Program-made: the position numbers and the translations under genes | Notes under the pieces: generated by a model | Database searches by the model: none | What the model was told of the DNA's origin: nothing | What the model saw: only the letters and a program-made list of their open reading frames with translations | NCBI RefSeq assembly: GCF_015709525.1 | Contig: NZ_JADNRA010000036.1 | Location: 124,001-188,000, forward strand | Reading direction: 5' to 3' | Length of the DNA stretch: 64,000 nt | Origin: Methylocystis sp. L43 | GTDB taxonomy: Bacteria > Pseudomonadota > Alphaproteobacteria > Rhizobiales > Beijerinckiaceae | In this document: positions 57,442 through 63,814 of the stretch, piece by piece | Layout: every line of letters starts with the position of its first letter | Position numbering within the stretch: position 1 is the stretch's first letter

Positions 57442-57870
57442 CTATTTGCGCACGACAAGCACCGAGCATTTGGCGTGACGCACGATGGTCTTGGCGTTGG
57501 AGCCGAGCAGATAGGTCGCCATCGTCGGGCGATGCGAACCGACCACGACAAGATCGGCGCCCCATTCCTCGGCTTCGGCGAGCACTTCCGGGTAGACGGC
57601 GCCGAAGCGCACGATCGAGGAGACGCGATCCGCCGGATAGGCGATCTTGCCACGCAGCACTGCGAGGTCCTTTTCGGTCGCCTCGCGCATCTCCTCGTCA
57701 AAATTGGGCGGGATGTAGTCGATGAAGGCCACCGGAACGAGCGGCTGGACATTGATGAGCCGAAGCTGAGCCTCATGCTCCACTTTTGCAAGCGCCACCG
57801 CCGCGTCGAGCGCGATCTGCGTGACCTCCTCCTCGCCGATCTCCACCGCCACCAATATTTTTTTATACAT
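57442..57870 (-). CDS. universal stress protein (UspA family)
   Basis: 142 residues from the ATG at 57870 (GGGAGGCGGGA upstream). MYKKILVAVEIGEEE, an Ala-rich helix, and the C-terminal DLVVVGSHRPTMATYLLGSN then AKCSVLVVR give the single-domain Usp fold; the nucleotide motif is GSH then GSNA, close to but not identical with the standard G-2x-G-9x-G(S/T). ATP binding is likely. It is expressed in stress in many bacteria. The gene lies between cytochrome c and the tail-tube gene, all on the minus strand. Confidence 0.92.
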   Translation of the reverse strand: MYKKILVAVEIGEEEVTQIALDAAVALAKVEHEAQLRLINVQPLVPVAFIDYIPPNFDEEMREATEKDLAVLRGKIAYPADRVSSIVRFGAVYPEVLAEAEEWGADLVVVGSHRPTMATYLLGSNAKTIVRHAKCSVLVVRK

Positions 57871-57962: not shown

Positions 57963-58478
57963 TCAATCGTAGGATGGCTCCGCCGGCTCGGTGACGGAAA
58001 GGTCTCGTTCCCAGCCCTCGTTTTCGAGCACGAGCCGCTGAATGGCGACGGCCGAGCCATTGGCGTCGAGCGTCGGCAGCGCCTCGAAGCAAGACGGCCA
58101 ACAGCGGCGGATGACATAGGCGATCGCCACCTGGCCAGCTTCGTTGAGAAGTTCGAGGACGACGTCCTTGCGGAAATCCTTGAGCGAAGATTCAACGCCC
58201 GCCGCGCCGTCAAGACTCCAGACCTTGTTCACCCAGCGCTCGAATTCAAGATCATGCGAGACGCCGCGTTCGATGACGATCGGCGCGAAGGTCGTCGCGC
58301 CCGGCAGCTTGCGCGCCAACGACGGGCTGCCGCCTTCCCGATATTCAATAACTTCAGTCGTGCGTCGCAACGGCCCGACGAGCGAGACGCCCGCGACATA
58401 GCGTCCGTCCCACTTCAATCGGAACTTGAAGTTTTTGTAGGGATCGATGCGGGCGGCGTTGACGGTGAATTGCGACAT
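57963..58478 (-). CDS. orphan phage tail-tube protein (T4 gp19 family)
   Basis: 171 residues preceded by GAGGGGATTTCA. MSQFTVNAARIDPYKNFKFR, LKWDGRYVAGVSLVGPLRRT and TEVIEYREGG, followed by a beta-rich domain (ATTFAPIVIERGVSHDLEFE), match the gp19/Afp1 tube subunit family of phage tails and contractile injection systems. These proteins stack into the inner tube. No sheath, baseplate or spike gene is nearby, and the gene lies among housekeeping genes with normal GC content. It may be a domesticated or remnant gene. Domain identity is fairly secure, function is not. Confidence 0.78.
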   Translation of the reverse strand: MSQFTVNAARIDPYKNFKFRLKWDGRYVAGVSLVGPLRRTTEVIEYREGGSPSLARKLPGATTFAPIVIERGVSHDLEFERWVNKVWSLDGAAGVESSLKDFRKDVVLELLNEAGQVAIAYVIRRCWPSCFEALPTLDANGSAVAIQRLVLENEGWERDLSVTEPAEPSYD

Positions 58479-58684
58479 TGAAATCCCCTCGAGCAATTCG
58501 CGCGCATGAGCCCTTTGATGGCCGCTTCACTCAAGCAGGCAAAGACGAAGCGCTGCGCTCTTTGTTAGATCGAACCACTCTCCAAAAAGTGGTGGAAAAG
58601 TGGATTTGTCACGGCGACCCTGTTTTTAAAAGCTCAGACTAAGTTAAGCTCGATAGCAGTTTCAGATAGTCTTTGGAGGAGTTT

Positions 58685-59641
58685 ATGAAGGCTTGGTTTG
58701 GAGCCGCCCTTGCGGCGTCACTCTTCGCGTCGTCCCACGCCTACGCCGCCGAGAACGGCGTCAACTACGATCCTGCGCACAGCGGCGCTTACGTGGCGGC
58801 GCAGAAGGCAAATGACGTCGCGACGATGAAGAAGGTTGTCGGCGACGATCTCACCCAGATCAGGACGCTGGGCTTTTCGCGGGTCAAGACATTCTACTCG
58901 ACTTATTGCACGATCAACGGGCAGCAATGCGTAAACATCGCTGAGCTGGCGACGGCGAGAAACATGCGCCTGATGCTGGGCGTTTTCGAATTTCCCGATC
59001 ATCCCGACTGGACGCAGTCGCAGATCAGCGCCGCCGTCGACGCTAATTTCCGTTACCCCGGAACGGTCGTCGCGATCGTCGTCGGCAATGAAGACATGTT
59101 CGATTGGCAAGGCAATCCGCAGCCAGCGATGCAGCAGCGAATCGTGGCCGACATGAACACGCTCAGGAGTAAGACCAATAACAAGGTTGTGGTGACGACG
59201 GCGCAACGCGCGCCGGATTGGATTCGCCTCGCCGCCAGCGATCCTCAAAAAGTGCTGCAGAATGTCCCCGTCATCGGCGCCAATATCTATCCGTTCTGGG
59301 GCGGCTCGCCCGAGAAGGTCAACGGCAGGAGCGTCGCAAACGATATTCAGGCCACTGTTACGGACTTAGCGAGCAAAACCACGAAGCCGGTCATCGTCAC
59401 CGAAGAAGGCTGGCCGAGCTGTGGAAACAACGCCGGCATGAAGGACATGAACATCGAGTCCGAAATTGATTATTTCAGCACGTGGAAAACGCGCCAGCAG
59501 AACTTCGACAGTTATTATTTCGCCGCTTACGACAAACAATCCGGCGGCGGCTGTCCGAACAACGACGACGCCGACAGGCATTTCGGCTTATGCAGCGAAT
59601 CCGGCTTAACGAAGGACGTCCGGCTGATGAAATGCAAATAG
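58685..59641 (+). CDS. secreted GH17-like beta-1,3-glucanase
   Basis: 318 residues from the ATG at 58685 (GGAGGAG upstream). Signal peptide about 1-21. RVKTFYSTYCTINGQQCVNI, VVGNEDMF (acid/base Glu136) and VIVTEEGWPSCGN (nucleophile Glu240) are the GH17 catalytic motifs best known from plant and fungal beta-1,3-glucanases. The length fits one (beta/alpha)8 domain. It probably acts outside the cytoplasm on glucans. Upstream DNA of about 200 bp is relatively AT-rich. No glycan-synthesis genes are adjacent. Confidence 0.8.
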   Translation: MKAWFGAALAASLFASSHAYAAENGVNYDPAHSGAYVAAQKANDVATMKKVVGDDLTQIRTLGFSRVKTFYSTYCTINGQQCVNIAELATARNMRLMLGVFEFPDHPDWTQSQISAAVDANFRYPGTVVAIVVGNEDMFDWQGNPQPAMQQRIVADMNTLRSKTNNKVVVTTAQRAPDWIRLAASDPQKVLQNVPVIGANIYPFWGGSPEKVNGRSVANDIQATVTDLASKTTKPVIVTEEGWPSCGNNAGMKDMNIESEIDYFSTWKTRQQNFDSYYFAAYDKQSGGGCPNNDDADRHFGLCSESGLTKDVRLMKCK

Positions 59642-62011: not shown

Positions 62012-62806
62012 ATGACGAATCTGACCGACCCGCTTTTCACGAACGAAGACGCCGCCCGCGCGCATTTCGAGAAAATCCGCTGGCCCGACGGCAAGCCCGT
62101 CTGCCCGCACTGCGGCGTTGTCGATCAGGCGACGCGCCTTGAAGGAAAGTCGCATCGCCCCGGCTTATTCGTCTGCCGCGCTTGCCGCGAGCACTTCACC
62201 GTGACGGTCGGAACCGTCATGGAGTCCTCTCACGTCCCGCTCCATAAATGGGCGCTCGGCTTTCACCTGATGGCGTCCAGCAAGAAAGGCATTAGCGCTC
62301 ACCAGTTGATGCGCAATCTTGGCCTCGGCTCCTATCGGACGGCATGGTTCATGGCGCATCGCATTCGCGAGGCGATGGCGGACCGCGACCCGGAGCCCCT
62401 TGGAGGCAAGGGAAAGACGGATGAGGTCGACGAAACCTATATTGGCAAGCCGGACTCAACTTTCGTCAACGGCAAGGGATGGGTGGGCAAGCGCGGCACG
62501 GCGACGAAGCGAAAGGTGCTGACGATGGTTGAGCGCGGCGGTCGCTGCGTCTCTATCAAGGTCGACGATCTCACCATCCCGACGATTAAGAAGATTTTGG
62601 GCGCGCATATCGTGCTCGACTCAACTCTCAACACGGACGAAGCGCAGTTCTACAAGCAGCCCGGCAAAGCGTTCGCAGCGCATGAGGCGGTCAATCAAGG
62701 CAACGGCGAATATGCGCGCGGCGAAACGACGACGAACAAGTTGAAGGATATTTCGGCATTTTCAAACGCGGAATGCGTGGCGTGTATCACCACTGTGGAA
62801 GCTTAG
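62012..62806 (+). pseudogene. IS1595-family transposase, frameshifted and truncated
   Basis: Open for 264 codons. The N-terminal zinc ribbon (CPHCGVV, CRACREHF), GTVMESSHVPLHKWALGFHL and the catalytic region (DEVDETYIGKP, later IVLDSTLNTDEAQFY) match IS1595 transposases. At about 62738 one base is missing: after AAC the frame reads NKLKDIS, while the +1 frame restores EGYFGIFKRGMRGVYHHCG, the conserved third catalytic block with its Glu. Sequence then diverges, so the normal last 30 or so residues are absent. The protein as encoded should be inactive. Confidence 0.88.
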
Positions 62807-62967
62807 GCGTCTTTTGGCTTGGCTCGAACTCTTCGACGCGCTTTAGTCTCGGCTTGCGGCTGAGCGCGCTCCGCCTTACCGACAATTTCCCTGCTCGGCT
62901 TTGGCGGCGTGTTCAGCGCGCGGCGGATCGCGTCATCACGCCTTGCGTCAATTTCATCGTCTCTCAT
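62803..62967 (-). CDS. small basic protein, IS1595-associated
   Basis: 54 residues from the ATG at 62967. MRDDEIDARRDDAIRRALNT then PPKPSREIVGK resembles short proteins commonly annotated beside mobile-element genes in Rhizobiales (RRDEAIRRALNTPPKP type). The C-terminus is Arg/Lys-rich. Convergent with the transposase remnant, overlapping it by four bases. Function unknown; possibly a DNA-binding accessory or antitoxin-like protein. Confidence 0.5.
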   Translation of the reverse strand: MRDDEIDARRDDAIRRALNTPPKPSREIVGKAERAQPQAETKARRRVRAKPKDA

Positions 62968-62989
62968 ATTACAGGCCTCGCCCTTCGCC

Positions 62990-63814
62990 ATGCCCAAAAC
63001 CCCAGATCACAAACAACGTTGTATCTTCTGCGACGTCATCTATACGCCAGAAAACAAGCGGTCAGGCGAGCATATATGGCCCGAGTGGATGCATCCGCTT
63101 CTCTCAGGCAAGCGGAAAAGCCATATGGGCTCAAAAATAAAAGGCCGGCGGGACATTCAGAACCGCAAAGTTTTCATTTGGCCTTCGTCAAAAAAGCGCG
63201 CCGGCGATCCAGTGAGCAAGCGCATGAACGTCGTGTGCAGCGGCTGCAACTCCGGGTGGATGTCTCGCACTGAATCATCTGTAAAACCTATATTGTCCAG
63301 GATGATTCTAGGCACACCATGCATTATAACTGAAGATGAACAGACAATACTGGCAAGATGGTCAACGCTAAAAGCGATTATCGCGGAATTTGATGATACT
63401 GAACACATGGCAATTTCTGGTTCTGATAGAAACATGTTCTATCAGAAACAAGAACCGCCGCCTAAATTCAAGATATGGATCGGCTACTACATGGGGAACG
63501 ACTTATTACCTACATACTATAACCACCAAGGAATTCAAGTTACGAAAAAAGGATCATCTATACCTTTCAGTGAAAGCCCAATGTTCAACACACAGGCAAC
63601 CACGATCATCTGTGGAAAATTCTACCTTTATCTCGTTTCGTCTTCGTTCGAAGGTTTCGAAATTAGCTTTCAAGGCTTTGTAAGCCTGCAAATGCGCAGA
63701 ATCTGGCCTGCCCTCGATCGAGTGATCGAGTGGCCTATCGTCCCCGAGATGAACGACGATGACGCTCGACTCGTCTCGAACTCGCTTATGCCTTCGCTCA
63801 TTAAAAACGGGTGA
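62990..63814 (+). CDS. putative HNH/treble-clef nuclease-like protein in the cassette
   Basis: 274 residues. CIFC (Cys11, Cys14), GEHIWPEWMH (His28) and CSGCNSGWM (Cys83, Cys86, Asn87) form the CxxC...EH...CxxCN arrangement of zinc-bound HNH-like domains. The remaining 180 residues are not recognised and have alternating beta/alpha character (FKIWIGYYMGNDLL, TIICGKFYLYLVSS). The 3' two thirds are clearly AT-rich, unlike the window average. No strong ribosome site precedes the ATG at 62990. Catalysis is inferred only. The gene lies inside the inverted-repeat cassette as cargo. Confidence 0.6.
   Translation: MPKTPDHKQRCIFCDVIYTPENKRSGEHIWPEWMHPLLSGKRKSHMGSKIKGRRDIQNRKVFIWPSSKKRAGDPVSKRMNVVCSGCNSGWMSRTESSVKPILSRMILGTPCIITEDEQTILARWSTLKAIIAEFDDTEHMAISGSDRNMFYQKQEPPPKFKIWIGYYMGNDLLPTYYNHQGIQVTKKGSSIPFSESPMFNTQATTIICGKFYLYLVSSSFEGFEISFQGFVSLQMRRIWPALDRVIEWPIVPEMNDDDARLVSNSLMPSLIKNG

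What the first reader, a model, noticed from the sequence alone, without database searches (positions are those of the whole stretch)
57963..58478. Orphan gp19/Afp1-type tail-tube gene with no phage or injection-system neighbours
Tube subunits normally sit next to sheath and baseplate genes. Here the gene is between a UspA gene and a glucanase, with normal composition and a good ribosome site. It may be a domesticated tube protein, a part of a dispersed contractile system, or a prophage relic.
Basis: partly seen in the sequence, partly recalled or inferred. Interest (0 to 1): 0.55.

Follow-up and report, generated by a model that had tools for sequence, protein, structure and literature searches.

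The report
Lone injection-tube gene without its machine
Some methane-eating Methylocystis bacteria keep, under natural selection, one gene for the inner tube of a phage-tail-like injection machine although no other gene of that machine was found, and similar lone copies occur in unrelated bacteria and on one phage fragment.

Summary
Confirmed: window 57963-58478 (-) is an intact 171-aa gp19/Afp1-type tube gene (PF06841, 2e-35), the only PF06841 match in its genome, with a good ribosome site and no phage or injection genes beside it. It is not a T4-phage relic: its relatives are inner-tube genes of extracellular contractile injection systems (eCIS). 75 of the 80 best genome loci have an eCIS-type sheath gene just upstream. 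In Methylocystis the lone gene sits at the same UspA locus in 5 of 39 genomes. Profile searches find no eCIS-type sheath or Pvc16 gene in those 5. It is under purifying selection (omega about 0.07-0.14 in two independent pairs, weaker against G604). Relatives show empty sites and two decayed remnants: a useful but dispensable gene. Lone tubes recur in other lineages and once as an extra gene on a viral contig with its own sheath and tube. 'Domesticated tube' is the best-supported reading; 'dispersed machine' is not supported; 'relic' fails for this copy but fits two relatives. Function is untested; I favour a self-assembling ring used without a machine, perhaps as a decoy.

The parts
57963..58478 (-). 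lone eCIS-type inner-tube gene, 171 aa (stop included in the coordinates)
58485..58490 (-). Shine-Dalgarno-like GAGGGG, 6 nt before the start codon
   Evidence: a similar sequence is seen in G593
57967..58591 (.). segment (625 bp) that holds the gene and its leader; replaced by 25 bp in G580 and G581, and (left border 7 bases off) by 29 bp in G190; in G582 the left border is the same but the gap is larger
57442..57870 (-). UspA-family gene 92 bp downstream, same strand; present with or without the tube gene in the genus

Best explanation
The gene encodes an Afp1/Cis1-type inner-tube subunit of an extracellular contractile injection system that has become a lone gene and has been kept for its own sake (domesticated) in a Methylocystis clade. 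Shown: identity of the family, lone state, conserved locus, purifying selection, more than one loss. Inferred: the subunit still folds and probably still makes six-membered rings, perhaps short tubes, without sheath or baseplate. Least certain: what the rings do. My first choice is interference, a decoy subunit that spoils or blocks assembly of tail or eCIS tubes made by an incoming phage or a rival element (about 25%); next an orphan-Hcp-like carrier or adaptor (about 20%) or a structural or stress-linked role with the adjacent UspA gene (about 15%); the rest is something else.
For: Relatives are eCIS tubes: 75 of the 80 best genome loci carry an eCIS-type sheath 19-357 bp upstream; 67 of these 75 also have Pvc16 and AAA+ matches and 52 DUF4157 as well within the stretch held. 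Annotated clusters in Streptomyces and Paracoccus plasmids show the same. Best solved relatives are the Algoriphagus and Anabaena tubes, and the AlphaFold model (mean pLDDT 79.5, pTM 0.72) finds them first. Same UspA locus in 5 of 39 genus genomes; 5 of 5 lack PF17482, PF04984 and PF14065 matches. Selection: G000/G601 6 synonymous and 2 nonsynonymous changes (P 0.0096), G593/G589 22 and 4 (P 6.6e-9), against a neutral expectation of 71% nonsynonymous. Remnants in G578 and G595 and empty sites in others show an old, dispensable resident. Lone copies recur elsewhere, and one is an extra gene on a viral contig that has its own sheath and FII tube, a place where accessory genes travel.
Against: No expression or biochemistry. 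Against G604 the constraint is weaker (10 synonymous, 10 nonsynonymous with G000, omega about 0.41, P 0.04). Lone tubes have longer branches and break more eCIS-conserved positions (8 of 85 here), which also fits relaxed constraint. No defence model matches, so the decoy role rests on context alone. G601 is a 90% complete, 7% contaminated assembly in 490 contigs. Both Pfam sheath models miss a P2/Mu-type sheath that the genome does contain, in a Mu-like prophage, so absence is shown for eCIS-type genes only.
Confidence: 0.62

Rival explanations
1. Relic of a lost eCIS: the cluster was once in the ancestor and only the tube gene is left, on its way out.
For: Remnants in G578 (last 29 codons, 90% identity) and G595 (67 bp, 78%; 49.1 bits against at most 25.6 in 200 mononucleotide shuffles). 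Lone tubes have longer end branches than eCIS tubes (Mann-Whitney P 0.012, 7 against 16 rows). In G895 a Pvc16_N gene stands beside the lone tube, and in L084 and L131 a PF19266-like gene does, as if clusters had been worn down.
Against: Five intact frames at the same place with synonymous changes in excess; no other eCIS remnant found in the window; the two genus mates with a full eCIS (G587, G588) have it elsewhere with a tube only 60.6% identical.
Confidence: 0.22
2. Part of a dispersed contractile machine whose other genes lie elsewhere in the genome or come from a resident prophage.
For: A contractile Mu-like prophage lies on contig 18 with sheath, FII tube, tape measure, baseplate J and Tail_P2_I genes, and on viral contig L237 a lone tube stands next to a phage sheath and FII tube.
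Against: The prophage has its own FII-type tube (PF04985, 2.8e-17). No eCIS-type sheath or Pvc16 match in any of the 5 genomes. I did not test whether the other four carry the same prophage.
Confidence: 0.06
3. Horizontally moving accessory (moron-like) gene with no lasting host function, caught between gain and loss.
For: Patchy: 5 of 39 genus genomes at this locus, 9 of 199 family genomes with any match; one copy on a viral contig; unrelated neighbours at the lone loci compared.
Against: Within Methylocystis it stays at one place in several species with purifying selection.
Confidence: 0.1

Closest known systems
eCIS inner tube Afp1/Pvc1/Alg1/Cis1 (PF06841, TIGR02241)
   Same: Sequence family, length, predicted fold; nearest solved chains are 7adz and 7b5h.
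   Different: No sheath, cap, baseplate or AAA+ gene beside it and no eCIS-type sheath or Pvc16 in the genome by profile; far below the CIS1 (41.8 of 220) and CIS5 (57.1 of 260) equivalog cut-offs; eCIS-conserved residues changed at 8 of 85 positions. I did not run eCIS-embedded relatives against those two equivalog models.
Orphan Hcp genes of type VI secretion
   Same: Tube-protein gene standing apart from its machine (papers seen in a search listing only).
   Different: Another protein family (PF05638, recalled). Orphan Hcp, as I recall, usually serves a T6SS encoded elsewhere in the genome; no machine was found here.
T4 gp19 phage tail tube
   Same: Pfam family name and fold (5w5f at rank 21).
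   Different: Best phage-genome match is 32% identity (6 Streptomyces phages); no phage genes beside it.

Membership tests
PF06841 / TIGR02241 tube family | score over the curated cut-off along the whole model | tested here: met
   121.9 against 28.2 bits, 1-134/134; 123.2 against 62.4
eCIS (extracellular contractile injection system) | at least four linked structural genes of three kinds (criterion of PMC8213781, passage read) | tested here: not met
   only the tube matched in the window (36 queries; 39 queries) and nothing in the next 20 kb
eCIS (extracellular contractile injection system) | eCIS-type sheath gene in the genome | tested here: not met
   PF17482 and PF04984 find none in the 5 lone-tube Methylocystis; PF17482 finds the sheath beside the tube in G088, G105, G154, G180, G587 and G588. 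A P2/Mu-type prophage sheath in G000 escapes both models.
eCIS (extracellular contractile injection system) | Pvc16 cap gene in the genome | tested here: not met
   PF14065: 2 of 39 genus genomes (G587, G588), not the 5 lone-tube ones
eCIS (extracellular contractile injection system) | CIS_tube (Afp7-like) gene in the genome | tested here: inconclusive
   PF19266 finds none in the 5, but also none in the eCIS-bearing G587, so its silence says little
CIS1 / CIS5 equivalogs (NCBIfam NF053769, NF053770) | score over the equivalog cut-off | tested here: not met
   41.8 of 220 and 57.1 of 260 bits
domesticated single-gene derivative | purifying selection while the machine is absent | tested here: met
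   weaker against G604
domesticated single-gene derivative | expression and a function of its own | not testable with these tools
   no transcript or protein data
prophage gene | phage neighbours or phage-level similarity | tested here: not met
   neighbouring ORFs read by eye, UspA by Pfam, 32% best phage match

The most novel reading that the evidence does not exclude
Lone eCIS-type tube proteins form a lineage or recurrent class that lives without any machine, spreads between phyla and on phages as a single gene, and works as a self-assembling ring, for example as a decoy against tail or eCIS assembly. Tube positions K33, K85, N16 and N142, near-invariant in eCIS tubes, are repeatedly changed in lone tubes (the window copy changes K33 and N142), which would mark a surface freed from sheath or neighbour contacts.
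Probability: 0.25. Interest if true: 0.75.

Novelty: new variant of a known kind. Interest (0 to 1): 0.5.

Why it matters
Surveys of contractile injection systems demand several linked genes (PMC8213781 and PMC12210884, passages read), so lone tubes are discarded by design. If lone tubes are functional, part of the phage-tail toolkit has a second life without sheath or baseplate, and the Methylocystis locus, with intact, decayed and empty states in close relatives, is a ready test case. Searches for papers on such genes listed none that I could recognise as about them (listings of open-licence PMC papers only).

Tried and rejected
Rejected: T4-type phage remnant (32% best phage match); stray duplicate of the resident prophage tube (FII family); assembly-edge artefact (410-kb contig); a shared partner gene at lone loci (ORFs of 8 lone loci plus G604 compared all against all: apart from the tube and its antisense frames only the L084/L131 PF19266-like pair and two other two-locus similarities appear, G198 with L084 and G632 with G895); a known defence family (PADLOC, no match); a sigma-70-type promoter before the gene (none found; the one hit lies downstream).

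Inconclusive: one clade of lone tubes. Label changes are fewer than in shuffles (4 against a mean of 7.8, 0 of 500 as low, one Methylocystis row). Against it: the careful 68-row tree needs 4 changes, 0% of 200 bootstrap trees have one group, and one clade is merely not rejected (p-AU 0.29); the nearest rows to the window protein outside Methylocystis are eCIS tubes; one eCIS tube (L015) falls among the lone ones. In the 98-row quick tree the constrained tree scored better than the free one (p-AU 0.92), so that free search was incomplete. Long branches may drive the grouping. Rows left out: one search used 68 of 112 tubes (57 eCIS rows picked by me, 11 lone ones); one search left out 4 Methylocystis near-copies; one search left out 15 of 112 (those 4 and 11 distant rows, among them the G636 lone tube) and added L237; searches left out 11 distant rows and used one Methylocystis row.

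Errors made and repaired: UspA was read in a wrong frame and redone (there with one codon too many at the start). One search's alignment mixed strands and was used only for the ribosome site of G593. In one search protein alignment rows got into a nucleotide database by mistake and caused warnings; the rows taken from it (names) are loci only. 'No sheath in the genome' was my reading until one search showed a P2/Mu-type sheath that both Pfam models miss; I now say eCIS-type sheath. The tblastn component queries are not fully sensitive: they missed the Pvc16_N gene of G895 that Pfam found.

Full report
Observation. It matches PF06841 along its whole length (2.1e-35), TIGR02241 over its cut-off and PHROG 4542 'tail tube protein' (7.3e-17). 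GC (61.6%) and GC3 (76%) are like those of six neighbours (57-69%, 75-83%). It is the only PF06841 match in the 4.06-Mb genome and lies 182 kb into a 410-kb contig. Of 36 eCIS component proteins taken from three annotated plasmid clusters, only the tube matched the window at 1e-3; with 39 queries at 1e-2 again only the tube did, and the next 20 kb gave nothing.

What it is. Contig names and lengths of near-identical loci (94-99%) place the genome in Methylocystis. The other 77 of the 80 best loci in a scan of GTDB genomes are 63-68% identical. Of the 80, 75 have an eCIS-type sheath match 19-357 bp upstream (median 37); 67 of the 75 also have Pvc16 and AAA+ matches, 52 DUF4157 as well, within the stretch held. 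The 5 without a sheath are 3 Methylocystis loci and L084 (Verrucomicrobiota) and L131 (Pseudomonadota). Annotated plasmid records of Streptomyces and Paracoccus show the cluster. The nearest solved chains are the Algoriphagus (7adz, 1.5e-14) and Anabaena (7b5h) tubes. The AlphaFold model (51 rows, pLDDT 79.5, pTM 0.72) finds the same chains first, then PVC and AFP tubes. TM-scores there are only 0.55-0.66 with rmsd above 5, so the fold is recognisable but the model is not exact. Phage genomes give at best 32% identity (6 Streptomyces phages).

The lone state in the genus. A 2.2-kb probe (MOSC to tube) matched 37 of 39 genus genomes; it matched in full at this locus in 5: G000, G601, G593, G589, G604. 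PF06841 finds 7 of 39: these five and G587 and G588. G587 and G588 have an eCIS cluster at another place with a tube 60.6% identical. The five lone-tube genomes have no match to PF17482, PF04984, PF14065 or PF19266. PF17482 found the sheath beside the tube in all six close eCIS-bearing genomes it was run on (G088, G105, G154, G180; G587, G588). PF19266 found nothing in the eCIS-bearing G587, so its silence says little. G601 is only 90% complete with 7% contamination. Four other genus genomes (G089, G578, G585, G603) have a PF17482 match that I did not follow.

A correction to my own claim. The genome does hold another contractile apparatus. The single GPW_gp25 match led to a Mu-like prophage on contig 18 with a Mu-type transposase, baseplate J, Tail_P2_I, a sheath (PHROG 23, 1.2e-34, on the 320 aa read; no Pfam match), an FII tube (PF04985, 2.8e-17), tape measure and a hub-like protein. 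Its tube is of another family. So the lone gene is not a stray copy of it, and the absence shown is of eCIS-type genes.

History of the locus. In G580 and G581, window 57967-58591 (625 bp) is replaced by 25 bp; in G190 nearly the same segment is replaced by 29 bp; in G582 the left border is the same and the gap larger. G578 keeps the last 29 codons (90% identity) and G595 a 67-bp piece (78%) at the same place. The G595 piece scores 49.1 bits against at most 25.6 in 200 mononucleotide shuffles. On a tree of the flanking DNA (17 genomes) intact, remnant and empty states are interleaved (5 changes in all, the least possible being 2; 20 of 200 shuffles as low), so loss (or gain) happened more than once. 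Taken with the G595 remnant, I read the gene as an old resident lost several times.

Selection. Independent pairs: G000/G601, 6 synonymous and 2 nonsynonymous changes (omega about 0.14, P 0.0096); G593/G589, 22 and 4 (omega about 0.07, P 6.6e-9). G000/G589 gives 15 and 5 (omega about 0.14), G601/G589 17 and 5 (0.12). Against G604 the constraint is weaker: 10 and 10 with G000 (omega about 0.41, P 0.04), 17 and 9 with G593 (about 0.22, P 1.4e-4). UspA has 0.04-0.37 and five other neighbours 0.14-0.56 in the same pairs. These are counting methods, not a codon model. They indicate that the protein has been kept by selection while alone at this locus.

Lone tubes elsewhere. In 199 family genomes 9 have a match: 7 of the close type (59% or more, own genome included), of which G000, G074 and G198 are lone and G088, G105, G154 and G180 have a sheath. 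G198 is a single-contig genome; G074 and G198 have no PF17482 or PF04984 match. In 397 order genomes (12 matches including G000), 10 of the 11 others have a sheath match in the 1.5-kb flanks; L058, a 29% relative, does not. In 398 phylum genomes (24 matches), 8 others are of the close type (45% or more): G895, G632 and G636 have no sheath match nearby, 5 do. G895 and the genome of L084 (G957) have no PF04984 match; G632 and the genome of L131 (G958) have one elsewhere, G636 one below the cut-off. PF17482 was not run on these five. In G895 a Pvc16_N gene (1e-10) stands next to the lone tube. In L084 and L131 a PF19266-like gene does (1.3e-6, over the cut-off; 2.1e-5, under it). So two lone loci keep a CIS_tube-like partner and one a cap-like one; at the Methylocystis, G074, G198 and G632 loci I found none. 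Apart from this, neighbours differ between lone loci.

On a phage fragment. Of 10 viral contigs with a relative found in two scans, 9 have an eCIS-type sheath match on the contig; L237 (5.6 kb) does not. L237 carries the tube in the opposite direction between an endolysin side (PHROG 181) and a phage sheath (PHROG 23, 1e-39) with an FII tube (PF04985, 2.4e-17). It is thus an extra gene on a phage that has tail genes of its own. It is 71% identical to the lone tube of G198 and groups with it and L131 (SH-aLRT 97-98).

How the lone tubes differ. At 85 columns conserved in at least 95% of 90 eCIS tubes, the window protein differs at 8, six other lone tubes at 3 to 15; the eCIS median is 0 and the two most diverged eCIS tubes have 13 and 9. 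The columns were chosen on the eCIS rows, which favours those rows. With eight diverged eCIS tubes set aside as a control (97 columns, 82 rows), lone tubes change the same columns more often than random placement allows (6 columns hit in 4 or more of 7; 0 of 10,000 simulations as many). The control also clusters (4 columns in 4 or more of 8, P 0.0003); two of its columns (2 and 141) are the same. More typical of lone tubes are K33 (4 of 7 against 0 of 8), K85 (4 against 1), N16 (4 against 1), N142 (6 against 2), Y27V and S98A (3 against 0 each). I could not place them on an interface. End branches of lone tubes are longer (7 against 16, P 0.012); the 16 include plasmid rows picked by similarity, and the lone rows may share an origin.

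How it may work. Shown: family, lone state, selection, repeated loss or gain, recurrence. Inferred: the fold, ring formation, a role without a machine. The decoy idea rests on three things: it is a single gene, patchily held and lost, with one copy on a phage. No test speaks for it directly, and no defence model matches. An orphan-Hcp-like carrier is the nearest rival. The closeness to UspA (92 bp, same strand) allows co-expression, but UspA stands there without the tube in other species, so I give it little weight.

Literature. The 2021 eCIS survey (PMC8213781, passages) grouped genes within 12 kb and required at least four members, at least three with different Pfam annotations. The 2025 metagenome survey (PMC12210884, passages) excluded candidates lacking tube, baseplate or sheath-initiator classes. 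Both would drop lone tubes. From PMC8894135 (passages) I take that Alg1 forms 22 hexameric layers and that Alg16A caps the tube. PMC9230969 was searched for one word only. Searches for lone or orphan eCIS tubes and for Methylocystis with contractile injection listed nothing that I could recognise as relevant. The library holds open-licence PMC papers only.

Verdict. Real, and mildly surprising: a domesticated or at least selectively kept lone eCIS tube gene, one of several. Function open.

Noticed in passing
L221, L048, L222 (G000 contig 18, about 12.6-66.6 kb; outside the window): Mu-like contractile prophage with its own P2-type sheath and FII tube; both Pfam sheath models miss this sheath, so profile-based 'no sheath' claims need a PHROG check.
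   Followed up: partly
L237:2521-3036: Viral contig with a lone eCIS-type tube as an extra, oppositely oriented gene beside a phage sheath and FII tube.
   Followed up: partly
L227:9703-10803: Pvc16_N gene and tube gene together in G895 with no other eCIS match in 20 kb: a two-gene remainder.
   Followed up: partly
L084:10001-11056 and L131:10001-11102: Tube followed directly by a PF19266-like (CIS_tube) gene with no eCIS-type sheath within the locus; a possible two-gene tube cassette in two phyla.
   Followed up: partly
62012-63814: Low-GC stretch with an IS1595/ISXO2-type transposase (PF12762) and a following ORF that looks HNH-like by eye; a likely recent insertion.
   Followed up: no
58762-59548: Divergent neighbour gene almost wholly missing in G604 (M. 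suflitae) while the lone tube is kept.
   Followed up: no
L222:991-1518 and L237:261-794: PHROG 55, labelled 'head closure', matches proteins that Pfam calls FII tail tube; the label looks wrong.
   Followed up: no
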